Shown one piece after another: positions 1 to 8,952 of a stretch of DNA of 8,952 nt. Numbering within the stretch: the stretch's first letter is position 1; every line of letters starts with the position of its first letter. The notes beneath the pieces are model-generated. The model saw only the letters and a list, made by a program, of their open reading frames with translations. It was not told where the DNA came from and did not search any database. Origin of the DNA: Clostridia bacterium (GTDB taxonomy: Bacteria > Bacillota_A > Clostridia > Christensenellales > CAG-138). The position numbers were made by a program, and so were the translations under genes. The stretch covers positions 1-8,952 of the forward strand of contig JAFZCW010000034.1 of NCBI GenBank assembly GCA_017556125.1, given 5' to 3'.

Positions 1-305
1 CCGATGATGAGGGAGTTCCGGAGCGGGACCCACAGGATCGTTTTCGTCAGAGGACTGGCGAGCAGATATTTCCAGTACCAGAGCGTATAGTCGCCGACTT
101 TTGCTCCGGGAATATTGCGAAGCTCCGATTTGGCGACGATGAAGGTGTTGTGCACCATGGACAGGAGCGGGATGACGATCAGGACAAACAGCAGGATCAG
201 CGTGATGAAAACGATCACATTGAAAGGATTCCCAATCAGGCTGTTGAACTGGTTCTTAAACCGCTCTTTGGTCATTGGAGGACGTTCCCATCCTTTTTTT
301 GCCAT
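1..305 (-). CDS. ABC transporter permease, FbpB/AfuB/PotB-like (N-terminal part, runs off left edge)
   Basis: This is the N-terminal 101 residues of an inner-membrane permease subunit of a binding-protein-dependent ABC importer. A basic cytoplasmic leader (residues 1-28) precedes one clear hydrophobic segment at about 29-51. An extracytoplasmic stretch follows, with a WYWKYLLASP segment at 76-85. A further segment ends in LRNSLIIG at the edge; the Y-x-x-L ... NSL pattern is typical of the region before the second helix in FbpB/ThiP/PotB-type permeases. Start: ATG at 305, with AGGAGG seven bases upstream. It lies 63 bp downstream of HAD1 in the same direction with no terminator between, so the two are probably co-transcribed from the operator-bearing promoter near 1200. 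The substrate cannot be read from this part. Relatives import iron, thiamine, polyamines, phosphonates and (AfuABC) hexose phosphates. The fold call is good; the substrate is unknown. Confidence 0.82.
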   Translation of the reverse strand, partial: MAKKGWERPPMTKERFKNQFNSLIGNPFNVIVFITLILLFVLIVIPLLSMVHNTFIVAKSELRNIPGAKVGDYTLWYWKYLLASPLTKTILWVPLRNSLII

Positions 306-368: not shown

Positions 369-1136
369 TCAGGAGCGGGCGGCCTCGATTTCCCGTTCTT
401 TCTTCAGAATGGTGTAGACATCATAGATGTCCGTGATCTGATAATCGGGTTGCACGTCATATTCGCCGAGATCTTTCTGCGGCGTCAGGAAGGAATTGAT
501 CTTGAACACGCGCCCGAAGCCCATTCTGCGGGGGCCTACGACATCTCTTGAAAGCGTGTCACCGACGAACGCGCATTCGGAGGGGTCGAGATCCGCCTGC
601 GCAAGAGCGACGCGGAAGATGTTCGGATGGGGTTTGCGGTAGCCGGTGACCGAAGAGAGCGTAATGTCGTCAAAGTACTGGCGGATCCCGTATTTCTTCA
701 GGGTCGAAAAGACCTGGAACAGGCTTCCGGTGTTGCTGACGACGGAAACATACATGCCGAGGTCTTCTTTCAGGCCTTTCAGCATTTCGGCTCCGTGCTC
801 GCGGAGTTTCCTGTCATAAAAAGTCGTTTCCCACATATGCGCGATTTCTTCGCTGATCTCAGCGAGCTTGGTGCGGTTTACCGGGATATCCCGGAATCCC
901 CAGTCGACCCAGATGACTTCCGGCTTCAGTTCGACGAGCGTCCGCTCGGAATCCTTCTTATATGCCTGGATCCCTTCGCCGACGATCTCCCAGAGGCGTT
1001 CAGCCCCGTAGGGGACCTGGATATCGTGCTTTTTAAGGATGTCATAGAGCGCGTATGCGGTTGCCTTGTTGTTTTTTTCGTCTGAATACAGGTCTTCCAG
1101 CGTACCGCCCATATCGAACATTACGGCTTTGATCAT
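369..1136 (-). CDS. HAD1: HAD-superfamily (subfamily I) hydrolase-like protein with DxGGT motif I
   Basis: This 255-residue cytosolic protein has the HAD Rossmann core and an alpha-helical C1 cap (about residues 18-105). Motifs: I is DMGGT with the nucleophile D8, but G10 replaces the usual general acid/base Asp; II is VVSN with S134; III is RKPHP with K168; IV is GDTLSRD with D193 and D198. The Mg2+ ligands and nucleophile are therefore present, while the residue most HAD phosphatases use to protonate the leaving group is not. The cap carries an E-x-x-W-x-x-W element (E73, W76, W79) echoed in the four HAD proteins on the other strand. The ATG at 1136 has GAGGAG eight bases upstream. It is the first gene after the left promoter/operator and precedes the permease. 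It resembles HAD2 more than HAD3-5 (VVSN, GDTxSRDV). Family membership is sure; substrate and reaction are unknown. Confidence 0.88.
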   Translation of the reverse strand: MIKAVMFDMGGTLEDLYSDEKNNKATAYALYDILKKHDIQVPYGAERLWEIVGEGIQAYKKDSERTLVELKPEVIWVDWGFRDIPVNRTKLAEISEEIAHMWETTFYDRKLREHGAEMLKGLKEDLGMYVSVVSNTGSLFQVFSTLKKYGIRQYFDDITLSSVTGYRKPHPNIFRVALAQADLDPSECAFVGDTLSRDVVGPRRMGFGRVFKINSFLTPQKDLGEYDVQPDYQITDIYDVYTILKKEREIEAARS

Positions 1137-1174
1137 GGATTGTTCTCCTCTGCTGATGATGAAGTGTGGGTCAG

Positions 1175-1188
1175 CGTAAACGTTTCCG
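1175..1188. promoter_or_regulatory. Operator A for the LacI-family regulator
   Basis: The 14-bp CGTAAACGTTTCCG fits the palindrome CGNAAACGTTTNCG at all defined positions. It has the central CG dyad typical of LacI/GalR operators. It lies just downstream of the HAD1 promoter -10 region and upstream of the HAD1 start, where a bound repressor would block initiation or early elongation. The same word recurs at the two divergent promoters near 4770 and 4950. Assignment to the LacI protein encoded at 3728-4741 is inferred from this recurrence. Confidence 0.8.
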
Positions 1189-1203
1189 AAAAAGTACGAT
1201 TAA

Positions 1204-1233
1204 ATATTATCATCTCATGACAGGCACTGTCAA
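1204..1233 (-). promoter_or_regulatory. Promoter of the HAD1-permease operon
   Basis: On the minus strand, a perfect -35 TTGACA (1228-1233) is followed by a -10 within TGATAATAT. The -10 can be read as GATAAT with a 16-base spacer or as TAATAT with an 18-base spacer and a TG extension. The A+T-rich stretch downstream leads into operator A at 1175-1188. The predicted start is about 1195-1200. Confidence 0.75.
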
Positions 1234-1284
1234 TTCAAAAAATACGGTCGTTTTAGGTACTTTAAAAAGCGGAACAGTAAGGGA

Positions 1285-1312
1285 GCAGGCCGTTCTGTTC
1301 CGAACGGCCTGC
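1285..1312 (-). terminator. Hairpin terminator at the end of the lacI-PHP-pfkB-mgtC operon
   Basis: A perfect 11-bp inverted repeat (GCAGGCCGTTC / GAACGGCCTGC) with a 6-base loop lies ten bases after the MgtC-family stop codon. Read on the minus strand, the run of T is not immediate: a mixed sequence of about 15 bases precedes CTTTTT. Termination may therefore be incomplete or factor-assisted. On the plus strand a T-rich stretch follows more closely (from about 1321), but no gene reads into it from that side. Confidence 0.65.
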
Positions 1313-1322
1313 ACGGTGATTT

Positions 1323-2051
1323 TTATTTTGTGAGTTCGCAGCTGATCGCGCGGATGTTGCCGATCGACTCGAGGAAAGCCGCGATATCGCTGACGGTAAT
1401 ATCCTGCCCCATGCGCAGGGTGAATTCGTAGTTTGCGCTTCCGTCGTCGTTGAAAGCAACTTTGGTCGCGAGGATCTGCATTTTCTGATCATTCACATAG
1501 GCCCGGAAGGCTTCCCGGAAAGCCTGGGGATCCTTGACCGTACAGCGGATCTTGCCGACGATCATGGAGTCTGCGCCGAGCGTGTACCGGTGCATCAGGA
1601 CCTGAAGGACGGCGATCAGGACGGTCGAAAGGATTCCGACGACATAGAGTCCCGCGCCGATCGCAAGGCCGATGCCCGCCGTAGCCCAGATGCCGGCCGC
1701 AGTGGTCAGACCCCGGATGGAGCTTCCTGTATGGAAGATGATGCCCGCGCCGAGGAAGGAGATGCCCGTGATGACCTGCGCCGCAAGTCGGGCGGGATCC
1801 GTGCCGTGCGTTCCGAAGAGGAAGGTTCCGTCGGCAAGTACGGTATCGGAGAAACCGTATTTGGATACGATCATGATCAGGGCGGCGGCGCAGCTGACGA
1901 TGATATGCGTGCGGATGCCGGCTTCCTTGAGCCGCTTTGTGCGCTCAATGCCGATTGCGGCTCCGCAGGCGCAGGCGACCACAAGCCTTAGGAAGAATTC
2001 CAGATACTGCATGATCGTGAAAGACTTGAGCAGTACTACACCGGATGTCAT
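1323..2051 (-). CDS. MgtC/SapB-family membrane protein
   Basis: This 242-residue integral membrane protein has about five hydrophobic segments (roughly 17-35, 45-63, 90-107, 112-133, 136-155) and a soluble C-terminal domain of about 85 residues that resembles the ACT-like tail of MgtC proteins. Family signatures are visible: IGIERTKRLKEAGIRTH (33-49), DPARLAAQVITGISFLGAG (85-103) with the conserved D85, and SIRGLTTAAGIWATAGIG (111-128). MgtC proteins are linked to survival at low Mg2+ and to modulation of P-type or F-type ATPases; many Firmicutes homologues have no tested role. Start: ATG at 2051 is backed by GCGAGG nine bases upstream; the internal ATG at 2012 has no comparable site. It is the last gene of the regulator operon, 76 bp after the kinase. 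That placement is odd for a sugar-use operon. Confidence 0.88.
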   Translation of the reverse strand: MTSGVVLLKSFTIMQYLEFFLRLVVACACGAAIGIERTKRLKEAGIRTHIIVSCAAALIMIVSKYGFSDTVLADGTFLFGTHGTDPARLAAQVITGISFLGAGIIFHTGSSIRGLTTAAGIWATAGIGLAIGAGLYVVGILSTVLIAVLQVLMHRYTLGADSMIVGKIRCTVKDPQAFREAFRAYVNDQKMQILATKVAFNDDGSANYEFTLRMGQDITVSDIAAFLESIGNIRAISCELTK

Positions 2052-2127
2052 TTCTGATGACCTCGCTTTCTTGCTTCCCGTCCGGACAGGACAGAGAACT
2101 TAATCAGAGGGAGGGAAACCTTTCCCG

Positions 2128-3006
2128 TTAACGGTAATACTTGTCGATGAAATCATAGACGTCCTGACGGGTTCCCTTGAACGGTCCGGGCGTTTCCATC
2201 TTCAGGGAAACCAGGGCGGCGGCAAATTCAAGGGCTTCCGGGATATCGTGCGACAGACGTTCGCCGAGATAACCGGCAAAGGTCGTATCGCCGCGTCCCG
2301 TTCTTCCCGCAAGTCCGCGGGGACGCAGGGGAGAGCGGTAGATTTTATGTCCGTCGCAGACGATCGCTTCCGTGTTGTGCGTGATCAGGACTTCTTTTGC
2401 GCCCATCTCGCAGAGCATGAAGGCGGCCTTCTCGCGGTCATCCGTTCCCGTGAGCACTTCCGCTTCCGCCGCGTCGGTCTTCAGATACCGGACATTCGGG
2501 AAGCTGGTGTATTTCTCCGGCCAGTCGAGGAGTTCCAGCGATCCGTCTTCGAATCTGCGCCGGAGAAGAGCCTGAACGTCCACGGCGGTATCCCCGCGCG
2601 CTGCGCACGCGGCGATGACGTCGCTTCCGATATCTCCGTAAACCAGACCGCCCAGGTGATAGATGCGGGCTTCCGCGTCCGGAAGATCCTCGGGGGTATA
2701 GGGCGGAATCATGCCCGTGTTCAGGCAGAGACGGCGCTCACGGTCAGGCGTGAAATAGGTGTTCTGCATTTCCGTGCAAGTGGGCGCGTCGACCGCAAAG
2801 ATCTTTTCCACTTTGCTGTCCGCGAAAACCTTGTACGGATCAAGTTTTTCCGGATTGCCCTTCGGGACGACGGCCACACTGTGCCCTACCGCCGATGCGG
2901 CGTAGCCGGAAAAAGTGACGGCGCCGCCGGCAATGTATTCTTCACGTCCGTCAAAGTCGATGTTGTGGTCCAGCGATATCTGGCCGATAATCATGAGATC
3001 ATACAC
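2128..3006 (-). CDS. PfkB-family carbohydrate kinase
   Basis: This cytosolic ATP-dependent sugar or nucleoside kinase of the ribokinase fold has 292 residues, a usual length. Visible landmarks, numbered from the GTG start: an N-terminal strand with D13-H14 and the GG-containing substrate motif AGGAVTFSG (26-34); a KTDAAEAEVLTG segment (176-187) matching the N-x-x-E region, with Asp in place of Asn; and GRTGRGDTTFAGYL (234-247), holding the anion hole and the catalytic Asp (D240). The canonical GAGD is here GRGD. The substrate is unknown. Start: TTG at 3012 lies only three bases from GAGG, whereas GTG at 3006 is nine bases from it and is preferred. With that start it overlaps the end of the PHP gene by eight bases, which suggests translational coupling. 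Its location beside a phosphoesterase-type gene and under the same regulator points to phosphorylation of the imported compound (inference). Confidence 0.9.
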   Translation of the reverse strand: MYDLMIIGQISLDHNIDFDGREEYIAGGAVTFSGYAASAVGHSVAVVPKGNPEKLDPYKVFADSKVEKIFAVDAPTCTEMQNTYFTPDRERRLCLNTGMIPPYTPEDLPDAEARIYHLGGLVYGDIGSDVIAACAARGDTAVDVQALLRRRFEDGSLELLDWPEKYTSFPNVRYLKTDAAEAEVLTGTDDREKAAFMLCEMGAKEVLITHNTEAIVCDGHKIYRSPLRPRGLAGRTGRGDTTFAGYLGERLSHDIPEALEFAAALVSLKMETPGPFKGTRQDVYDFIDKYYR

Positions 3007-3709
3007 TTTCAAGTACCTCGCATTCTTTTATAATATTTTCATTTCCGGGGCTCCAGAGCCGGAAGTTCCCGGAAGTCAGCACGTTCTTCATTTCATAGGA
3101 GTCCGTGATGCGGTTCTCGCACAGGATCGCGGCGCGCCCTTCATCGCCGATGCGGTGCGCATCCGATCCCACCACGCGGTACAGATGCGGATTCTCCTTC
3201 GCAAGCTTCAGCGCCAGTTCGTTCCGGCTGTCGTGCCGGGGGTTGCAGTTGACCACTTCAAGCCCGTGCACGCAGTCATAATATACGATATCGTTATGCC
3301 GGTAGGGATGCGCGTGGATGATCAGGATCTCTTTTCCGTAGGTATCGAAAAAGGACTGATGATCCATCCGGCAGATGAACGGATGGTCGTAAAGCCACTG
3401 TTCATCGATTCCGTAAAGCAGGTAATCGCTTTCATTCTCCGGGAAACGCAGTTCGCAGCCGAGGATGATATCCATTCCGAGGGCTTCGCCCGCCTTTTTC
3501 GCGTTCCGGTATCCGGATAAATACCGGTCCATGCATTTTTCCCAGTTATCCGGACAGCCCAGCATAGAAAGGTAAGTATCATGCAGGTGGTCCGTCACGC
3601 ACAGGCCCTGATAGCCCAGACTGTGATAGGTCTTCACCTGATCAACCGCGGGCACGTGGCCGCAGCGGCTGGTCTCCGATGTGTGCAGATGCAGTTCGTA
3701 CTTATACAT
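2999..3709 (-). CDS. PHP-domain metal-dependent hydrolase (phosphoesterase-like)
   Basis: This 236-residue, stand-alone PHP-domain protein has a TIM-barrel-like fold that binds two or three metals and in known members hydrolyses phosphoesters (histidinol phosphatase, YciV/RNase AM and relatives). All metal-ligand motifs are visible, numbered from the chosen start: ELHLHTSE with H7 and H9; TDHLH with D40 and H41; CELRF with E86; HAHPYR with H132 and H134; and GSDAH with D183 and H185. No polymerase or other domain is attached, so a small-molecule phosphatase or related hydrolase is likely. Start: ATG at 3709 follows GGGGGA by six bases. The in-frame ATG at 3727, directly after the regulator's stop codon, has no ribosome binding site and would add six residues. 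It is second in the regulator operon and overlaps the kinase start. The fold and metal site are sure; the substrate is unknown. Confidence 0.88.
   Translation of the reverse strand: MYKYELHLHTSETSRCGHVPAVDQVKTYHSLGYQGLCVTDHLHDTYLSMLGCPDNWEKCMDRYLSGYRNAKKAGEALGMDIILGCELRFPENESDYLLYGIDEQWLYDHPFICRMDHQSFFDTYGKEILIIHAHPYRHNDIVYYDCVHGLEVVNCNPRHDSRNELALKLAKENPHLYRVVGSDAHRIGDEGRAAILCENRITDSYEMKNVLTSGNFRLWSPGNENIIKECEVLESV
3016..3021 (-). promoter_or_regulatory. Ribosome binding site that selects the GTG start of the PfkB kinase
   Basis: GCGAGG read on the minus strand is three bases from an in-frame TTG (3012) and nine bases from an in-frame GTG (3006). The nine-base spacing is the workable one. 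The site lies inside the end of the PHP coding sequence. Confidence 0.55.
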
Positions 3710-3715
3710 CAATTG

Positions 3716-3721
3716 TCCCCC
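3716..3721 (-). promoter_or_regulatory. Ribosome binding site that selects the PHP-gene start
   Basis: GGGGGA on the minus strand is six bases before ATG at 3709. Nothing similar precedes ATG at 3727. The resulting protein begins MYKYELHLHT, putting the first metal-binding His pair at the extreme N-terminus, as usual for PHP proteins. Confidence 0.5.
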
Positions 3722-3727
3722 GGACAT

Positions 3728-4741
3728 TTATACTCTGTTCATTTTCAGGCAGGATCCGCGCACGACCAGCGAAGGGGAAACAAGCATGCTGGTGTATTCC
3801 GTTTCCGTGCCGTCGATGTGGCGGAACAGCATATCCATCGCCGCGGTCGCGAGTTCCTGCTTCGGCTGATTGATCGTGGTCAGGTTGATCGGCGGAAGGG
3901 AAGCGAACGAGATGTTGTCGAATCCCATCAGCGAAAGGTCTTCCGGGATCCGGATCCCTTTTTCGTACGCGGCGTGCATGACGCCGATCGCAAGCGTGTC
4001 GGAAGCGCATAAAATGGCGGTCTCGTCGTGCGGACTTGAAAAATGTTCGCGCGCGAGCAGATATCCCGCCTCATGGGAGCTCCTCGGATAGCTGCTTTCT
4101 ATGATGTTCGGTTCAAGCCCGAGTTTCCTGCAGGTCGAGATATATCCTTCCACGCGCAGCGAATGCGTCACGCTGTTCTTTCTTGCGCCGAGGTAGAGGA
4201 TCTTCCTGTGGCCGAGGGAATACAGGTATTCCGTCGCGATCTGCATGCCCAGCGTATTGTCGATGGAAATATAATTCTCCGGAAGGTCCTGCATGTTTTC
4301 GCTGACGAAAACCGTCGGGACCTGCGCGGTGAGAGACTTCAGATTCTCATGCGATTCGTGACTGATCGGAAGGATGATGATCCCGTCGACCTTTCGGCTG
4401 AGGAGCAGCCGGAACACGTCGCGCTCCTGCGCCTGATTGTAGGAGGAGTTGCATACCATGAGGTTGTATCCGTGTGCGCGCGCATAGGTCTCCAGATGGA
4501 CGGTCAGCTCGCTCATGAACGGGTTATCGATACTGGCGAGGATAAGCCCGATGATGTTCGTGCGCTTCATCACCATGGATCTTGCGACGGAATCGGGCGT
4601 ATATCCCATCTCGTCGCACAGTTTGAGAATGCGCTGGCGGGTCTTTTCCCCGATTTCAGGGCTGCCGGACAGCGCGCGGGAAACGGTGGCGTAAGAGACG
4701 CCCGCGACTTTGGCGACATCTTTCAATGTTAAAGAACGCAT
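3728..4741 (-). CDS. LacI/GalR-family transcriptional regulator
   Basis: This 337-residue DNA-binding repressor has the usual family length. Residues about 5-25 form the helix-turn-helix (LKDVAKVAGVSYATVSRALSG region) and about 50-60 the hinge. From about 62 a periplasmic-binding-protein-like effector domain starts with IIGLILASIDNPF; DNTLG, LYLGAR and SLMGFDNISFA mark the usual conserved strands. It is expected to bind a sugar or sugar phosphate and to release or hold DNA accordingly. The ATG at 4741 has AAGGAGG six bases upstream. It is the first gene of its operon and divergent from the HAD2 operon. The operator at 4770-4783 in its own promoter implies autoregulation, and matching sites at 1175 and 4950 suggest it also controls the two HAD operons. 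The effector cannot be identified from sequence by eye. Confidence 0.93.
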   Translation of the reverse strand: MRSLTLKDVAKVAGVSYATVSRALSGSPEIGEKTRQRILKLCDEMGYTPDSVARSMVMKRTNIIGLILASIDNPFMSELTVHLETYARAHGYNLMVCNSSYNQAQERDVFRLLLSRKVDGIIILPISHESHENLKSLTAQVPTVFVSENMQDLPENYISIDNTLGMQIATEYLYSLGHRKILYLGARKNSVTHSLRVEGYISTCRKLGLEPNIIESSYPRSSHEAGYLLAREHFSSPHDETAILCASDTLAIGVMHAAYEKGIRIPEDLSLMGFDNISFASLPPINLTTINQPKQELATAAMDMLFRHIDGTETEYTSMLVSPSLVVRGSCLKMNRV

Positions 4742-4769
4742 GGCCGGCCTCCTTATTTCCCCGAATTTC

Positions 4770-4783
4770 TGTAAACGTTTTCG
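4770..4783. promoter_or_regulatory. Operator B (regulator autoregulation)
   Basis: TGTAAACGTTTTCG matches CGNAAACGTTTNCG at 11 of 12 defined positions. Eight bases separate it from the -10 box of the minus-strand promoter of the regulator operon, so it covers the predicted transcription start. This spacing equals that of operator C on the other strand. Confidence 0.8.
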
Positions 4784-4791
4784 CTTATCTC

Positions 4792-4821
4792 ATTCTACAT
4801 TCGGAGCGCAGGCTTTGTCAA
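4792..4821 (-). promoter_or_regulatory. Promoter of the regulator-PHP-pfkB-mgtC operon
   Basis: On the minus strand, -35 TTGACA (4816-4821, perfect) and -10 TAGAAT (4792-4797, one mismatch) are separated by 18 bases. The predicted start is about 4785, inside or next to operator B. Confidence 0.78.
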
Positions 4822-4861
4822 TGCTCCGGAGAGGGCGTAAAGCTCAGGAAATCAGAACGCA

Positions 4862-4894
4862 TTCCGCCAGGTCCAGAGACCGGTCCGGGCGGAA
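4862..4894. repeat. Nested inverted repeat between the divergent promoters
   Basis: TTCCGCC (4862-4868) and GGCGGAA (4888-4894) form an outer inverted repeat. An inner GGTC (4870-4873) pairs with GACC (4878-4881), followed by a second GGTCC. The element lies about 17 bases upstream of the HAD2 -35 box and outside both predicted transcripts, so a protein-binding site is more plausible than an RNA structure. Its role is unknown. Confidence 0.4.
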
Positions 4895-4911
4895 CAAACG
4901 TGATTTCAATA

Positions 4912-4941
4912 TTGACAAGCATAAGGTTTTTGATTTAAAAT
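4912..4941 (+). promoter_or_regulatory. Promoter of the HAD2-HAD5/iPGM-like operon
   Basis: -35 TTGACA (4912-4917, perfect) and -10 TAAAAT (4936-4941, one mismatch) are 18 bases apart. The predicted start is about 4948, at the left end of operator C. Confidence 0.8.
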
Positions 4942-4949
4942 ACAGCCAT

Positions 4950-4963
4950 CGTAAACGCTTGCG
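4950..4963. promoter_or_regulatory. Operator C (HAD2 operon)
   Basis: CGTAAACGCTTGCG matches CGNAAACGTTTNCG at 11 of 12 defined positions. It begins eight bases after the -10 box, the same geometry as operator B on the opposite strand. A bound LacI-type repressor here would block initiation. Confidence 0.8.
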
Positions 4964-4992
4964 TTCATATTCTGCTCTGGAGGGTTTTCTGG

Positions 4993-5754
4993 ATGATTTC
5001 GACTCTTCTCTTCGATCTGGGCGGGACACTTCATTCGGTAAAACGGACGGATGATACCTGCAGACGCTTTTCAGAGCATCTTCTTTCCCGCCTGGCGCAG
5101 TACGGCATCCATCTTGACACAACCCCTGAGGAACTCTTCGCGGTCATCCGCAGAAACGCGGAGGAATACAAGCACCGCGGGGAAAAGGATCATACCGAGC
5201 TGGAGCAGGGCGAGATCTGGAACGATTATTACCTGAAAGAATTTCATATCGGCAGGGAACGCCTTGCCCCGATCGCGGAGGAACTCAGTTTTCTCTACGA
5301 TTATGAACGCGTGACGAACATGCGCAAGCCCCGTCTCAAGGAGACGATCCTTGAACTGCACGACATGGGGATCCGGATGGGCGTCGTTTCCAACATCATC
5401 TCCACCTCGCTCGTGCCGCACATGCTGCACGAGTACGGCATTTTTGATCTGATGGAATGCATCGTGATGTCGAGTTCCACCGGGATCCGGAAGCCCGATC
5501 CGCGCATCTTCGATATCGCGCTTCAAGAAATGGGCGTCTCCGCCGCGGAGACGGGATATGTCGGCGATACGATCTCGAGGGACGTGCTCGGAGCGAGAAA
5601 CGCGCATCTGGGACTCGCGGTGCGCATCAACAATCCGTCGATCGCCCACAGGGACGCGGCTTTTCAGGGGGCAGGCGCCCCAGAGGCCGATTTTGTAATA
5701 GACGAGCTGTATGAGCTGCCGGATATCATGCGCCGTGTGAACGGCATGCAGTGA
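4993..5754 (+). CDS. HAD2: HAD-superfamily (subfamily I) hydrolase-like protein with DxGGT motif I
   Basis: This 253-residue protein is the first gene of the plus-strand operon. Motif I is DLGGT (nucleophile D8, G10 in place of the general acid/base Asp); motif II is VVSN (S133); motif III is RKPDP (K167); motif IV is GDTISRD (D192, D197). The C1 cap holds an E-x-W element (E74, W76) in the place seen in the other four copies. GDTxSRDV and VVSN link it to HAD1, on the far side of the locus, more than to the adjacent HAD3-5. Start: ATG at 4993, with GGAGGG eight bases upstream. A 55-base gap separates it from HAD3, with no terminator seen. The 5' leader holds operator C. Fold and Mg2+ site are sure; the substrate is unknown, and simple phosphatase activity should not be assumed given the missing Asp. 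Confidence 0.88.
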   Translation: MISTLLFDLGGTLHSVKRTDDTCRRFSEHLLSRLAQYGIHLDTTPEELFAVIRRNAEEYKHRGEKDHTELEQGEIWNDYYLKEFHIGRERLAPIAEELSFLYDYERVTNMRKPRLKETILELHDMGIRMGVVSNIISTSLVPHMLHEYGIFDLMECIVMSSSTGIRKPDPRIFDIALQEMGVSAAETGYVGDTISRDVLGARNAHLGLAVRINNPSIAHRDAAFQGAGAPEADFVIDELYELPDIMRRVNGMQ

Positions 5755-5809
5755 TATGCGCGCAGGTCATTTTTGATTCGATTACTGAAACGGAAAAGGA
5801 GACAGCACT

Positions 5810-6541
5810 ATGACGGATACGATCTTTTTCGATGTCGGAAACACCCTGCGCATCGTGGTGAAGGACAAGGAGTTTTCGGACAGGGCCGAGAAAGAGCTGA
5901 TGGAGCTTGTCGGCGCGACCGAACCGCACGATGTTTTTTACGAGAAGCTCGAGGCGCGCTGGAAAAAGTACCGCAAAGAGGTCAAAAAATCGCTGCTCGA
6001 CGCGGGCGAAATGGAGCTCTGGAGCCAGCATCTGCTTCCCGATTATGACCCCGAACTCGTCTGCGCGAACGCAGGCAGGCTGACCAGGCTCTGGCGCGAC
6101 CATGACGGCCGCAGGATCCCCCGCGACGACGTCAAGTCCACGATCATCGAACTGGACCGCCGCGGATATACGCTCGGCATCATCGCCAACACGATCACGG
6201 AAACGGAGATCCCGGACTGGATGGTGTCCGACGGCGTCGCACACTATTTCAAAGCAGTGATCCTTTCCTCCAAGGTCCGCCTCCGCAAACCGGATCCCGC
6301 CATCTATCACCTCGCCTGCAGGGCGATTGGGAAGGAGCCGTCCCAGTGCGCGTATGTCGGGGACAATCCGATCCGCGACGTGGAAGGGACAAGGAAAGCC
6401 GGCTACGCCCTGATGATCCGGATCGATGAGCCGGATACGATCAAAAACGAGCCGCAGGAGATCATTCTCCAGCCGGACTACACGATCACCCGGATTTCGC
6501 AGCTGCTGGACATCTTCCCGCCGCTCAAGGCTGAAAACTGA
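5810..6541 (+). CDS. HAD3: HAD-superfamily protein with DxGNT motif I and Ala in motif II
   Basis: This 243-residue protein has motif I DVGNT (D8; G10 replaces the acid/base Asp). Motif II is IIANT: Ala126 (GCC at 6185-6187) stands where Ser or Thr normally binds the phosphoryl group. Motif III is RKPDP (K160) and motif IV is GDNPIRD (D185, D190). The cap carries E69 and W71. It belongs with HAD4 and HAD5, sharing a [T/S]xEIPxW[ML] segment after motif II (here EIPDWM, 133-138) and GDNxxRDVEG. With two of the usual catalytic or binding positions changed, it is the copy most likely to have altered or lost phosphatase chemistry. Start: ATG at 5810 with AAGGAG eight bases upstream. It ends 17 bases before HAD4. 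Confidence 0.87.
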   Translation: MTDTIFFDVGNTLRIVVKDKEFSDRAEKELMELVGATEPHDVFYEKLEARWKKYRKEVKKSLLDAGEMELWSQHLLPDYDPELVCANAGRLTRLWRDHDGRRIPRDDVKSTIIELDRRGYTLGIIANTITETEIPDWMVSDGVAHYFKAVILSSKVRLRKPDPAIYHLACRAIGKEPSQCAYVGDNPIRDVEGTRKAGYALMIRIDEPDTIKNEPQEIILQPDYTITRISQLLDIFPPLKAEN

Positions 6542-6558
6542 TACGCAGGAGAAAACAC

Positions 6559-7320
6559 ATGGAAAAAGAATTTGACGCTGTCTTTTACGATCTCGGAGGC
6601 ACGCTCCGCCTTGTAGAGCGCGACGCGGAATTTGAAGCGGAGGCGCGCCGCAAAATCGCGGAAATGTGCGGAGAGACCGGCGATCCGGACGAATTCTGCA
6701 AGTTTCTGGATTACCGTTATGCCGGATACCGGAAATGGTGCTTTGAAACGATGCGGGAAGCGCCGGAGGAAGAGCTCTGGACGAAATGGCTGGCGCCGGA
6801 ATATCCCCGCGATCTGATCAGAAAGAACGCGATCGAGCTCACGATCGAATACCGCAACAAGGACGGCCGCCGGGTCGTGGCGCCGAACGGAGCCCAGTCC
6901 ATCAAGGACCTGTACGCGAACGGATACAAGCTCGGCATCATCTCCAATCTCGTGACCTCCCAGGAGATCCCGCGCTGGCTGAAGGAGGACGGTCTTGAGC
7001 AGTACTTCGGCGCCGTCCTGCTGTCCTGCGTGGAGGGAATCAGAAAACCGGATCCCGCCATCTCCAACAAGGCCTGCGCGCTGCTCGGGGTCAAGCCGGA
7101 GCGGTGCGTATATATCGGCGACAACCTGAAACGGGACGTGGAAGGCACCCGCCTTGCCGGGTACGGCATGTTTATTCTGTATACCACGCCCGAAAAGCTC
7201 GCCAAGGAAAAGATCACGGACGAGAACCGTCCCGACGCGGTCATATTTGATTTCAGCGAATTGAAGGAACTGTTCCCGAAAGCGCCGCATGTGGCGTGGG
7301 ACAAGGTACGGAGGGTATGA
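6559..7320 (+). CDS. HAD4: HAD-superfamily (subfamily I) hydrolase-like protein with DxGGT motif I
   Basis: This 253-residue protein has motif I DLGGT (D11; G13 in place of the acid/base Asp), motif II IISN (S129), motif III RKPDP (K163) and motif IV GDNLKRD (D188, D193). The cap holds EAPEEELWTKW (67-77), near identical to HAD5's EAPESMLWTRW, and RRVVAPNG (104-111) matches RVVVPNG there, so HAD4 and HAD5 are close paralogues. Start: ATG at 6559, with AGGAG seven bases upstream. Its stop codon is four bases before the HAD5 start, which indicates coupled translation. It shares a 19-base identical DNA word with HAD3 at the motif III region. The substrate is unknown. Confidence 0.88.
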   Translation: MEKEFDAVFYDLGGTLRLVERDAEFEAEARRKIAEMCGETGDPDEFCKFLDYRYAGYRKWCFETMREAPEEELWTKWLAPEYPRDLIRKNAIELTIEYRNKDGRRVVAPNGAQSIKDLYANGYKLGIISNLVTSQEIPRWLKEDGLEQYFGAVLLSCVEGIRKPDPAISNKACALLGVKPERCVYIGDNLKRDVEGTRLAGYGMFILYTTPEKLAKEKITDENRPDAVIFDFSELKELFPKAPHVAWDKVRRV

Positions 7321-7324
7321 ACAG

Positions 7325-8101
7325 ATGATCAACGGCATCAAAGCAGTATTTCTGGATCTCGGCGGGACGTTCCGGATCGTCGATGAAACCAACAAGCCGT
7401 ATATCCGCGAGGCGCGCAGCCGTATCGCGGATATTTGCGGTACGGACATGGATCCGGATTCGTTTTACGACTTTCTCAACAAGCGGTACGACACCTACCG
7501 CACCTGGGCGCTGAAGTATATGTGCGAAGCGCCGGAATCCATGCTCTGGACGAGATGGCTCGTTCCGGAATGGGACAAAGAAAAGATCGAAAAGGCGGCC
7601 GTCGAGCTGACCTACTGCTTCCGCAGGGCAAAGGGGGAGCGGGTCGTGGTGCCCAACGGCATCGACACGGTCAGGAAACTGATCGGCCGCGGATACAAGG
7701 TCGGGATCATCAGCGATCTGGTCGGCACGGCCGAGATCGACGAATGGCTCGACAAGGACGGCATCCGCGATCTGTTCTGCACCGTGCAGCAGTCTTCTGT
7801 CACGATGCTCCGTAAGCCGCATCCGGCCATCTATTTCCTGGCGCTCAGCGACGCCGGCGTCCGTCCGGAAGAGAGCTGCTTTGTGGGGGACAACCTGAAG
7901 CGCGACATCATCGGCGCGAAAGAGTCCATGTTTGCCGGAACGGTCGGCGTGGAATACCCGGGCGGGATCGAGTTCAAGCTGACGGAAGAGAACCGGCCGG
8001 ACTGCATCATCCATCATTTTGAAGAACTGCTGAACGTATTTCCCGGAGAAGGGGTTTTCGATCCCGGCCAGGCCGAGGATCCGGCTCCCCGCATTCATTG
8101 A
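7325..8101 (+). CDS. HAD5: HAD-superfamily (subfamily I) hydrolase-like protein with DxGGT motif I
   Basis: This 258-residue protein has motif I DLGGT (D11; G13 in place of the acid/base Asp), motif II IISD (S130, with Asp instead of the Asn that follows in the other copies), motif III RKPHP (K164) and motif IV GDNLKRD (D189, D194). The cap holds EAPESMLWTRW (68-78). A C-terminal tail of about 20 residues after the last core helix is rich in Pro, Gly and acidic residues. Start: ATG at 7325 is chosen because GGAGGG lies nine bases upstream. An in-frame ATG at 7289 would overlap HAD4 by 32 bases and add 12 residues unlike the other copies. It is the fourth gene in the operon, 35 bases before the iPGM-like gene. 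The closest paralogue in the window is HAD4. The substrate is unknown. Confidence 0.87.
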   Translation: MINGIKAVFLDLGGTFRIVDETNKPYIREARSRIADICGTDMDPDSFYDFLNKRYDTYRTWALKYMCEAPESMLWTRWLVPEWDKEKIEKAAVELTYCFRRAKGERVVVPNGIDTVRKLIGRGYKVGIISDLVGTAEIDEWLDKDGIRDLFCTVQQSSVTMLRKPHPAIYFLALSDAGVRPEESCFVGDNLKRDIIGAKESMFAGTVGVEYPGGIEFKLTEENRPDCIIHHFEELLNVFPGEGVFDPGQAEDPAPRIH

Positions 8102-8136
8102 ACGGAAACGCATCATAGAGAAGGAGCGATCAGAAT

Positions 8137-8952
8137 ATGGCAAACTATAAACTGGCAGGCGGCGACGCACTGGCGCGTGCGGTCGAGAAGCTTTACGTGA
8201 ACGGCGGATCAGAATACCATTTTGAGCCGATGAACCTGACGGACGCGGAGGGGAATCCGGTCGGACTCGTGAAGCCCGGCGACGGCGTGATCTTCTGCTG
8301 CCGCAGAGGGGAGCGCGAGACGGAGCTGACGGACGCCTTTACCGATCCGCAGTTCAAGGGATTCGAACGCAAGATGATCGATCCTCTTGATTTTGTGATC
8401 CTGACCATGTACAGCGAAAAATACACGTATCTGCCGATCGCGTTCGCGCCGTCGAAAGTGCAGAAGACGCTCGCGGAGGTCCTGTCCGAAAACGGAAAGA
8501 CCCAGATGCACCTGGCGGAGAGCGAGAAATACGCCCATGTGACGTTCTTTTTCAACGGCGGAAACCAGCATCCCTTCCAGGGAGAGGACGATATCCGGAT
8601 CCCCTCGCCGAAAGGAGTTCCGTTCGAAACGGTTCCCGAGCTGAAGATCGAGGAAGTTTCGGAAACGCTCTGCAAGGGGATCGACAAGGGATATGATTTC
8701 ATCGTGACAAACTTCGCAAACGGCGACGTGATCGGTCACACGTCAAGCGATTCGGCAAAGCCCGTCGCCTGCGAAGCGATCAGCAGGTATGTGGGGAAAA
8801 CTGTTGCTTATGCACGCGCACACGGATACAATGTTCTTGTAACGGCAGATCACGGAAACATCGAGATCCTGCACACGCCGGAAGGCAAGCCCCATGTTTC
8901 GCACACGACGAATCTCGTGGCCTGCATCGCGGTCGGCGAGGGAACGGAACAG
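8137..8952 (+). CDS. Shortened homologue of cofactor-independent phosphoglycerate mutase (C-terminal end off window)
   Basis: 272 residues are visible and the frame is open at the edge. They align with about residues 205 onward of GpmI: VIF-C-C-R-R-G-E-R (51-60) keeps the two Arg of the VIFFNFRxDR motif (R57, R60); ESEKYAHVTFFFNGG (128-142) keeps K131; FANGDVIGH (193-201) keeps D197 and H201; TADHGN (236-241) keeps D238 and H239; SHTTN (255-259) keeps H256. So one metal site is complete and the second is half present. The GpmI N-terminus, with the first metal-binding Asp, the nucleophilic Ser and several substrate-binding residues, is absent. It cannot be restored by a longer start: an in-frame TAG lies at 8116-8118. 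ATG at 8137 has AAGGAG ten bases upstream. Reading frame and motifs look maintained, so a working protein is more likely than a relic. Ordinary mutase activity through a phosphoserine is not expected. Confidence 0.85.
   Translation, partial: MANYKLAGGDALARAVEKLYVNGGSEYHFEPMNLTDAEGNPVGLVKPGDGVIFCCRRGERETELTDAFTDPQFKGFERKMIDPLDFVILTMYSEKYTYLPIAFAPSKVQKTLAEVLSENGKTQMHLAESEKYAHVTFFFNGGNQHPFQGEDDIRIPSPKGVPFETVPELKIEEVSETLCKGIDKGYDFIVTNFANGDVIGHTSSDSAKPVACEAISRYVGKTVAYARAHGYNVLVTADHGNIEILHTPEGKPHVSHTTNLVACIAVGEGTEQ

What the first reader, a model, noticed from the sequence alone, without database searches (positions are those of the whole stretch)
369..8101. Five HAD paralogues in one locus, all with the general acid/base Asp of motif I replaced by Gly
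HAD1 to HAD5 read DMGGT, DLGGT, DVGNT, DLGGT and DLGGT at motif I. In established HAD phosphatases the second Asp of DxDxT protonates the leaving group and then activates water. Members lacking it usually do other chemistry (dehalogenases, phosphonatase, ATPases) or are slow phosphatases. DxGGT occurs elsewhere in subfamily I, but five copies in under 8 kb, under one regulator, with nucleophile, Lys and DxxxxD kept, suggests a set specialised on related substrates, or on forming and holding an aspartyl-phosphate.
Basis: partly seen in the sequence, partly recalled or inferred. Interest (0 to 1): 0.75.

Follow-up and report, generated by a model that had tools for sequence, protein, structure and literature searches.

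The report
Five-phosphatase inositol gene cluster
Five related phosphatase-like enzymes, all missing the same catalytic acid, belong to a gene cluster shared by distantly related anaerobic bacteria that probably takes up and strips phosphate from inositol compounds, and its next gene is a sugar-acid mutase whose two halves are swapped in order.

Summary
HAD1-5 read DMGGT, DLGGT, DVGNT, DLGGT, DLGGT, and motif-I +2 is Gly in 263 of 263 readable copies in related loci (269 labelled). The cluster HADs group apart from same-genome DxDxT paralogues. HAD3 has also lost the motif-II Ser/Thr (Ala in 79 of 80). "Other chemistry" does not follow: E. coli YihX (DLGNV) is an active, selective phosphatase.

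The surroundings say more. The cluster recurs in Clostridia, Sphaerochaetaceae and Chloroflexota (79 loci). HAD5 is followed by a circularly permuted cofactor-independent phosphoglycerate mutase (65 of 65 near-full-length copies; canonical Asp154 is Ser). The PfkB is a TM0415-type pyrophosphate-dependent kinase by signature (RTGRGD in 47 of 47). In relatives the cluster adjoins inositol genes of two different routes: IolG/E/B/D, or IolG/M/N plus an IolO-like gene. One LacI-operator-like motif precedes both HAD operons.

Best reading: an inositol-phosphate uptake and dephosphorylation module; the HADs are phosphatases selective for cyclitol phosphates, the permuted enzyme a phosphomutase. Substrate untested; the comparison with genomes lacking the module could not be run.

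The parts
3..305 (-). Start of a fused double ABC permease (cut by the window edge; 613 aa in relative L002)
   Evidence: two BPD_transp_1 stretches in L002; nearest NCBIfam models are ModB, PhnU2 and CysT types, all under their cut-offs
369..1136 (-). HAD1, motif I DMGGTLED
   Evidence: +2 Gly in 15 of 15 readable copies of 16
1176..1188 (.). LacI-operator-like site GTAAACGTTTCCG upstream of HAD1
   Evidence: 1 mismatch to the pattern; AAACGTTT site upstream of HAD1 in 6 of 6 loci with HAD1 on the minus strand (arrangement)
1323..2051 (-). MgtC-family membrane protein
   Evidence: PF02308, 121 bits; in 16 of 79 related loci
2128..3012 (-). PfkB-family kinase of the TM0415 type, predicted pyrophosphate-dependent
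   Evidence: E 2.3e-35 to TM0415 (1vk4), next different protein 2.9e-5; RTGRGD in 47 of 47 copies over 250 aa
2999..3727 (-). PHP-domain phosphoesterase-like protein
   Evidence: PF02811, 34.4 bits over 26.4; in 37 of 79 loci
3728..4741 (-). LacI-family regulator
   Evidence: PF00356 + PF13377
4771..4783 (.). LacI-operator-like site GTAAACGTTTTCG (LacI side of the divergent promoter)
   Evidence: loose core sites in 50 of 60 LacI/HAD intergenic regions, 3.57 versus 0.146 per kb elsewhere
4951..4963 (.). LacI-operator-like site GTAAACGCTTGCG (HAD2 side)
4993..5754 (+). HAD2, motif I DLGGTLHS
   Evidence: +2 Gly in 48 of 48 readable copies of 50
5810..6541 (+). HAD3, motif I DVGNTLR; motif-II Ser/Thr replaced by Ala
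   Evidence: +2 Gly in 79 of 79 readable copies of 80; motif-II Ala in 79 of 80
6559..7320 (+). HAD4, motif I DLGGTLR
   Evidence: +2 Gly in 69 of 69 readable copies of 70; AlphaFold2 pLDDT 94.4
7325..8101 (+). HAD5, motif I DLGGTFR
   Evidence: +2 Gly in 52 of 52 readable copies of 53
8137..8952 (+). First part of a circularly permuted iPGM-like enzyme (cut by the window end; about 521 aa in relatives)

Best explanation
The five HADs are the phosphatases of a LacI-controlled module that imports phosphorylated inositol compounds and turns them into inositol for catabolism. An ABC importer brings the substrate in. HAD1, 2, 4 and 5 each form an aspartyl-phosphate on the motif-I Asp. Because Gly has replaced the acid/base Asp, leaving-group protonation and water activation depend on the substrate (a neighbouring hydroxyl or phosphate of the cyclitol ring) or on cap residues; the motif-I +6 residue is subfamily-specific (Glu/Gln in HAD1, mostly His in HAD2, Arg in HAD3-5) and may help. 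This keeps them off the cell's own sugar phosphates. HAD3, which also lacks the motif-II Ser/Thr, may be weak or have a binding role. The permuted PGM-like enzyme keeps the phosphoserine and metal residues and moves a phosphate to another position of the same molecule. The PfkB enzyme phosphorylates an inositol-pathway intermediate with pyrophosphate in place of IolC. SHOWN by sequence: gene content, conservation, permutation, signatures, operator-like sites, linkage to inositol genes in relatives. INFERRED: substrate, import, direction of flux, regulation by the LacI protein, substrate-assisted catalysis, mutase function.
For: The module occurs with two different inositol routes: IolG/E/B/D in, for example, L002 and L010 (IolD; IolB-like of L002 under its cut-off) and L036; IolG/M/N with an IolO-like gene in L025 (IolM 500 over 450, IolN 303 over 245, IolO-like 170 under 300, IolG 446 over 355), where a gene of the UxaE cluster lies between. 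What is common is inositol upstream of both. All 10 Gfo/Idh genes tested from the loci are IolG over the cut-off; the group is in 29 of 79 loci and is the next gene after the permuted one in 22 of 63. In the 14 genomes examined there are 16 IolG genes over cut-off in 43 Mb; 9 of 14 genomes have one within 13 kb of the permuted gene, expected about 0.01 per genome (relatedness not corrected). IolG over cut-off in 38 of 49 module genomes against 4 of 14 control genomes. Inositol monophosphatase PF00459 in only 16 of 49 against 14 of 14 controls. Kinase like TM0415, which phosphorylates myo-inositol with PPi (PMC5931981); a Levilinea saccharolytica homologue tested there is from the species of locus L036. 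IolC over cut-off in 0 of 14 (controls 3 of 14). LacI-type sites before HAD2, HAD1 and, in L025, the UxaE-cluster gene. The permuted enzyme is additional to a canonical iPGM in 9 of 14 genomes, with Asp154 to Ser in 65 of 65.
Against: No activity is known to me for any of these proteins. 50 of 79 loci show no IolG in the stretch held (many contigs are short), and in 41 of 63 the gene after the permuted one is something else. 11 of 49 genomes have no IolG over cut-off; 4 of 14 have no IolD over cut-off, one of them with two fragments. No comparison with related genomes lacking the module: that search failed 13 times, and the 14 controls are distant. IMPase absence could be lineage loss or incomplete genomes: all 10 Chloroflexota genomes have one. 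The operon in Clostridia also holds type II GAPDH and PGK, which fits glycolysis. The five HADs carry net charges of -5 to -12, caps -1 to -7, which does not favour highly phosphorylated substrates. Known phytases are not common: PTP-like phytase only weak partial hits in 3 of 14, one just over cut-off; histidine acid phosphatase in 1 of 14. TM0415 has a high Km for inositol (12 mM), and the authors suspect another true acceptor for it and for the Levilinea homologue (PMC5931981); the L036 stretch shows no PfkB gene, so whether that homologue is the module's kinase was not checked. IolC-like matches up to 241 bits, under the 300 cut-off, exist.
Confidence: 0.5

Rival explanations
1. Glycolytic and sugar-phosphate reading: the HADs dephosphorylate imported or overflow sugar phosphates, and the permuted enzyme is simply a phosphoglycerate mutase isozyme working with the type II GAPDH and PGK of the same operon.
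For: Type II GAPDH (397 over 185 bits) and PGK lie downstream in clostridial loci; transketolase halves in 23 and 22 of 79 loci; most iPGM motif regions checked are kept, though the pattern for the Arg261 region matched only 48 of 65; the binding-protein profile weakly matches 4r72-4r75 (E 0.004), which I recall as AfuA, a hexose-phosphate binder.
Against: A canonical iPGM over cut-off is present in 9 of 14 genomes, and apgM is in 13 of 79 loci and next to the permuted gene in 8; Asp154 is Ser in 65 of 65 and the SDGGVH region is changed in 63 of 65; GAPDH/PGK do not appear in the Chloroflexota and Oscillospiraceae loci held, while IolG recurs in clostridial, Oscillospiraceae and Chloroflexota loci.
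Confidence: 0.22
2. One reading: loss of the acid/base Asp makes these proteins form and hold an aspartyl-phosphate, or hand the phosphoryl group to an acceptor (for example phosphate, making pyrophosphate for the PPi-dependent kinase and the membrane pyrophosphatase).
For: Gly at +2 in 263 of 263 readable copies; a PPi-dependent-type kinase in the window and Na+-translocating pyrophosphatase-type genes in 11 of 79 loci, one of them (L019) preceded by an operator-like site.
Against: YihX with the same replacement turns over about 10 times per second (PMC4251788, passages). Making PPi from a phosphate ester is uphill (general knowledge). No sequence feature for acceptor binding was identified.
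Confidence: 0.08
3. The HADs are general house-cleaning phosphatases that travel with sugar and polyol loci, and the inositol link is a by-product of LacI-regulated carbon catabolism.
For: HAD phosphatases are often promiscuous (general knowledge); neighbours also include malate racemase, transketolase and iron alcohol dehydrogenase-like genes.
Against: Gene order and subfamily-specific residues kept across phyla; two different inositol routes attached.
Confidence: 0.15

Closest known systems
Escherichia coli YihX (HAD4), alpha-D-glucose-1-phosphatase, subfamily IA
   Same: Gly at motif-I +2 (DLGNV); nearest characterised row in the tree; active and selective (PMC4251788, abstract and passages).
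   Different: Long branch and weakly placed; single gene; Val instead of Thr at +4; different substrate context.
Thermotoga maritima inositol operon TM0411-TM0416 with kinase TM0415
   Same: TM0415-type kinase; IolG; in L025 also IolM, IolN and an IolO-like gene. L033 has only a weak, unspecific IolM match (178 under 450).
   Different: No five HADs or permuted mutase are mentioned for it in the passages and sections read; ROK regulator IolR instead of LacI (PMC3750489, passages).
Cofactor-independent phosphoglycerate mutase (TIGR01307)
   Same: Both halves match, 466.8 bits over 330.65 in sum for L002; phosphoserine and metal motifs kept.
   Different: The two halves are in the reverse order in 65 of 65 near-full-length copies; Asp154 is Ser.
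Bacillus-type iol pathway
   Same: At least one gene of the IolE, IolB or IolD groups beside the module in 14 of 79 loci; IolG and IolE of L002 and IolD of L036 over their cut-offs.
   Different: IolC over the cut-off in 0 of 14 genomes; IolB of L002 (98 under 205) and IolE of L036 (203 under 290) under theirs; HADs and permuted mutase added.
AfuABC/Fbp-type ABC importers
   Same: Fused double permease, ATPase and family-1-like binding protein.
   Different: The binding-protein profile matches 4r72-4r75 (AfuA, name recalled) only at E 0.004; proteins titled iron-binding score better over a short stretch. Ligand unknown.

Membership tests
HAD superfamily, subfamily IA phosphatases | Fold and motifs I, III, IV | tested here: met
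   Pfam over cut-off for all five, invariant D, K, GD..RD; HAD4 model matches solved HAD structures
HAD superfamily, subfamily IA phosphatases | Second Asp of DxDxT (acid/base) | tested here: not met
   Gly in 263 of 263 readable cluster copies of 269; YihX shows it is not indispensable for activity
HAD superfamily, subfamily IA phosphatases | Motif-II Ser/Thr | tested here: not met
   Not met for HAD3 only (Ala in 79 of 80); Ser or Thr in every parsed copy of HAD1 (12 of 16), HAD2 (46 of 50), HAD4 (65 of 72), HAD5 (53 of 56), the rest unparsed
HAD superfamily, subfamily IA phosphatases | Phosphatase activity | not testable with these tools
   No assay
iPGM (TIGR01307) | Catalytic Ser and two-metal site | tested here: met
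   GNSEAGH 65 of 65, TADHGN 65 of 65, N.ANGD..GH 65 of 65, DGWG motif 64 of 65
iPGM (TIGR01307) | Canonical domain order | tested here: not met
   C-terminal half first in 65 of 65 near-full-length of 74 labelled; in 114 of 114 listed proteins with both motifs, of 120 (not independent of the loci)
iPGM (TIGR01307) | Asp154 in the transferase site (number and role recalled) | tested here: not met
   GRS in 65 of 65; the Asp of 1ejj aligns with it
iPGM (TIGR01307) | 2-PG/3-PG mutase activity | not testable with these tools
   No assay
PPi-dependent ribokinase family (TM0415) | RXGRGD motif | tested here: met
   RTGRGD 47 of 47
PPi-dependent ribokinase family (TM0415) | Five key residues K171, F221, R229, R232, M266 | tested here: inconclusive
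   Window K178, R237, R240, M272 kept; F221 aligns with Leu229 (numbering offset of the tagged chain counted by hand)
Inositol catabolic locus | Inositol dehydrogenase and a downstream route encoded nearby | tested here: met
   In relatives only; the window itself ends before that position
Inositol phosphate uptake | Transporter binds inositol phosphate | not testable with these tools
   Binding-protein ligand unknown

The most novel reading that the evidence does not exclude
The cluster is a complete cytoplasmic pathway for inositol polyphosphates: an importer, several regio-dedicated HAD phosphatases whose missing acid/base is supplied by the substrate's own neighbouring groups, and a circularly permuted enzyme that is an inositol-phosphate mutase shifting a phosphate that the HADs cannot reach (for example the axial one), with pyrophosphate rather than ATP spent in the inositol branch.
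Probability: 0.22. Interest if true: 0.9.

Novelty: new variant of a known kind. Interest (0 to 1): 0.7.

Why it matters
If right, anaerobes of the rumen, gut and digesters can use phosphorylated inositol inside the cell by a route that often lacks the classical inositol monophosphatase and the phytase families searched, which bears on phosphorus and phytate turnover in animals. It also gives a natural test of how HAD phosphatases work without their acid/base Asp, and a natural circular permutation of a textbook enzyme, conserved with a changed active-site residue, which sources that name it mostly call simply phosphoglycerate mutase.

Tried and rejected
Rejected: that the last gene is a truncated iPGM (my first view); relatives show a permuted full-length enzyme. 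Rejected: that hexuronate genes beside some loci break the inositol link; D-tagaturonate is listed among the metabolites of the Thermotoga route in PMC5931981, and IolM/IolN were found with a UxaE-cluster gene in L025. In L033 and L042 the UxaE-type genes come with mannonate-oxidoreductase-like or other sugar-acid genes but no IolM or IolN over cut-off was found among the genes tested, so a plain hexuronate route remains possible there. Three proteins of 723, 727 and 719 aa join a canonical front half to a permuted protein (P0242, P0243, P0245); I take them as assembly chimaeras, not as an evolutionary intermediate, since the joins fall in the same conserved stretch; not tested. Plasmid search with window 3728-8952: no match. 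Search for papers by PDB codes 7F6E/7F6P/7F6N gave two zoological papers. A naive longest-ORF gene map took antisense frames for genes and was replaced by a codon-bias map (wrote the selections, then stopped with an error; finished). A note said that four Chloroflexota genomes without canonical iPGM have apgM beside; in the locus maps it is three of four (not L074). HAD4 fold search and HAD charges gave no substrate hint.

Literature: no paper on a permuted iPGM among the 5 or the 12 by title and start of abstract, and none of the words sought (permut, domain order and others) in PMC2964296 or, for permut, in PMC5382265. For HADs with inositol phosphate, one search listed 20 of 45 papers; none by title. 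Absence from print beyond these searches is not claimed.

Full report
OBSERVATION. Five HAD genes are present as stated. Motif I is DMGGT, DLGGT, DVGNT, DLGGT, DLGGT; the Lys of motif III and the GDxxxRD of motif IV are invariant among the five. Among the 120 listed closest proteins +2 is Gly in 119 and Arg in one. In related loci, rows labelled by best match to a window HAD (over 60 bits) have Gly at +2 in all readable copies: HAD1 15 of 15, HAD2 48 of 48, HAD3 79 of 79, HAD4 69 of 69, HAD5 52 of 52, window included; 6 of 269 have no readable motif. HAD3 in addition has Ala at the motif-II Ser/Thr in 79 of 80. The residue at motif I +6 differs by subfamily: Glu or Gln in HAD1 (15 of 15), His in most HAD2 (44 of 48), Arg in HAD3 (78 of 78), HAD4 (71 of 71) and HAD5 (52 of 52) (all labelled rows whose motif matched the pattern).

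TREE. With 83 rows (cluster HADs of 200-330 aa from the window and 15 loci, other HADs of four module genomes, five E. coli HADs), HAD3-5 with one extra Levilinea HAD form one clade (100/98), HAD2 another (100/100), and clostridial HAD1 groups with two other HADs of the Oscillibacter genome (85/94); three Chloroflexota rows form a separate HAD1-like set. Together with YihX they form a group of 61 rows (95/75) in which every readable row has Gly; all DxDxT rows lie outside, and two further Gly rows lie with YjjG. The fork uniting HAD1, HAD2 and HAD3-5 without YihX has only 81/84. YihX is an active phosphatase with strong preference for alpha-glucose 1-phosphate and very low pNPP turnover (PMC4251788, abstract and passages). 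The HAD4 model (pLDDT 94.4) matches solved HADs; nearest are PH0459 and its engineered BH32 descendants, and N-acylneuraminate-9-phosphatase. PH0459 reads FDFVGT.

RELATED LOCI. After a codon-bias gene map, counts in 79 loci are: HAD3 76, permuted PGM 73, HAD4 69, LacI 61, HAD5 55, HAD2 49, PfkB 46, PHP 37, IolG-like 29, ABC ATPase 18, MgtC 16, HAD1 15, permease 15, apgM 13, HppA 11; short contigs make these lower bounds. The Levilinea genome (L036) also has five HAD matches around the cluster: HAD3, HAD4, two in one 474-aa frame and one at the front of a frame that continues into what reads as a TIM-barrel protein; a like two-HAD frame is in L049.

THE PERMUTED MUTASE. The window protein at 8137 matches iPGM from about residue 214 onward. 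In relatives the protein is about 521 aa: canonical residues about 211-504 come first, then the canonical N-terminal part. 65 of 65 near-full-length copies (over 480 aa, of 74 labelled) have this order; GNSEAGH, TADHGN and the D..GH motif are kept in all; the canonical GRD reads GRS in all; the SDGGVH region is changed in 63 of 65 (two unmatched); the Arg261-region pattern matched only 48. Of 120 listed proteins, 114 show both motifs and all 114 are permuted; 116 have Ser, three Asp (as the three chimaeric ones would), one none. Sources that name them mostly say phosphoglycerate mutase, one says alkaline phosphatase family protein. The model has pLDDT 85.9; the 22 PDB matches with E up to 0.001 are all iPGMs and their alignments span 227-329 columns against 522 residues, about half, as a sequential aligner would give for a permutation. 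Of 14 module genomes 9 also hold a canonical iPGM over the cut-off; the other five are four Chloroflexota and L016's. It is therefore usually an extra enzyme, not the housekeeping mutase.

INOSITOL AND PYROPHOSPHATE. The gene after the permuted mutase is of the IolG-like group in 22 of 63 loci with a called next gene; 10 of 10 tested members score over the IolG cut-off. IolE (404 over 290) and an IolB-like gene (98 under 205; KduI/IolB Pfam family over cut-off) follow in L002, IolD (927 over 715) lies in L036, whose IolE is under cut-off (203). In L025 the module is followed by a UxaE-cluster, an IolM, an IolN, an IolO-like and an IolG gene; the UxaE label comes from its cluster, whose L042 member matches PF16257, while the L025 member itself had no NCBIfam hit at 1e-20. 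Over 49 module genomes IolG is over cut-off in 38; in the first 14, IolD is over cut-off in 10 and each genome has IolG or IolD over cut-off. Controls: IolG 4 of 14, IolD 3 of 14. IMPase is found in 16 of 49, among them all 10 Chloroflexota, against 14 of 14 control genomes; IolC over cut-off in 0 of 14, controls 3 of 14. The window PfkB matches TM0415 far better than any other solved structure and carries four of its five PPi residues and the RXGRGD motif, with Leu for Phe221; RTGRGD is in 47 of 47 copies over 250 aa. TM0415 uses PPi, not ATP or ADP, on myo-inositol, and a Levilinea saccharolytica homologue was also PPi-dependent, with unspecific products (PMC5931981; sections 6, 9 and 10 read). 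No PfkB lies in the L036 stretch, so that homologue may or may not belong to the module. Pyrophosphatase genes of the HppA group lie in 11 of 79 loci (one member tested, 942 over 894 for a sodium-translocating model).

REGULATION. GTAAACGTTTTCG and GTAAACGCTTGCG lie between LacI and HAD2 and GTAAACGTTTCCG lies before HAD1; 3 matches with at most one mismatch against 0.03 expected in the window. A loose core occurs in 50 of 60 LacI/HAD intergenic regions, 3.57 per kb against 0.146 elsewhere; of the 45 regions printed, all six from Chloroflexota lack it. Of 138 strict AAACGTTT sites in the loci and window, 33 lie inside called genes; sites precede HAD1 in 6 of 6 loci where it lies on the minus strand, one UxaE-cluster gene and one HppA gene. 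Binding of the LacI protein to them is inferred.

INFERENCE. The constant part (HADs and permuted mutase, with importer and PPi kinase in part of the loci) joined to two alternative inositol routes argues that it acts upstream, on a phosphorylated inositol compound. Which compound is open: monophosphates, glycerophosphoinositol or higher phosphates. The acidic HADs and rarity of the phytases searched (beta-propeller phytase not searched) lean towards lower phosphates. Substrate-assisted catalysis would explain conserved loss of the acid/base in enzymes that share a cytoplasm full of sugar phosphates; it is a proposal, not a result.

LIMITS. No genome is held for the window, so statements about inositol genes rest on relatives such as L002, whose corresponding genes are 85-96% identical to the window's. 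The order-wide background search never ran. Density statistics ignore relatedness, and some loci are near-duplicates (for example L010 and L011).

Noticed in passing
L002:11579-13147 and 64 other near-full-length copies in related loci: Natural circular permutation of cofactor-independent phosphoglycerate mutase, mostly database-named as the ordinary enzyme, with Asp154 replaced by Ser.
   Followed up: yes
window 5810-6541: HAD3, found in the most loci of the set, lacks both the acid/base Asp and the motif-II Ser/Thr (Ala).
   Followed up: partly
window 2128-3012: PfkB kinase with the pyrophosphate-dependent RTGRGD signature of TM0415; may replace IolC.
   Followed up: partly
L019, L023, L044, L049, L055, L058, L061, L063, L070, L078, L079: Membrane pyrophosphatase (HppA group) gene near the module.
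   Followed up: partly
L114 (L036 genome), L049:18965-20455: Chloroflexota carry a frame with two HAD domains; in Levilinea the second domain reads DAGDL and has GH in place of GD at motif IV, so it looks degenerate.
   Followed up: no
L010:15251-16501, L002:14240-15292: Type II (archaeal-type) GAPDH and a PGK in the clostridial operon, beside a LarAH6 malate racemase.
   Followed up: partly
P0242, P0243, P0245: Proteins joining a canonical iPGM front to a permuted one; probably assembly chimaeras.
   Followed up: partly
L054:5196-6176, L010:1764-2714: ComEC-like metallo-beta-lactamase-fold protein next to the ABC importer genes in some loci.
   Followed up: no
L033:12360-13547: Chloroflexota loci hold a phosphoribulokinase/uridine-kinase-like protein with an unassigned N-terminal half, sometimes twice per locus.
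   Followed up: no
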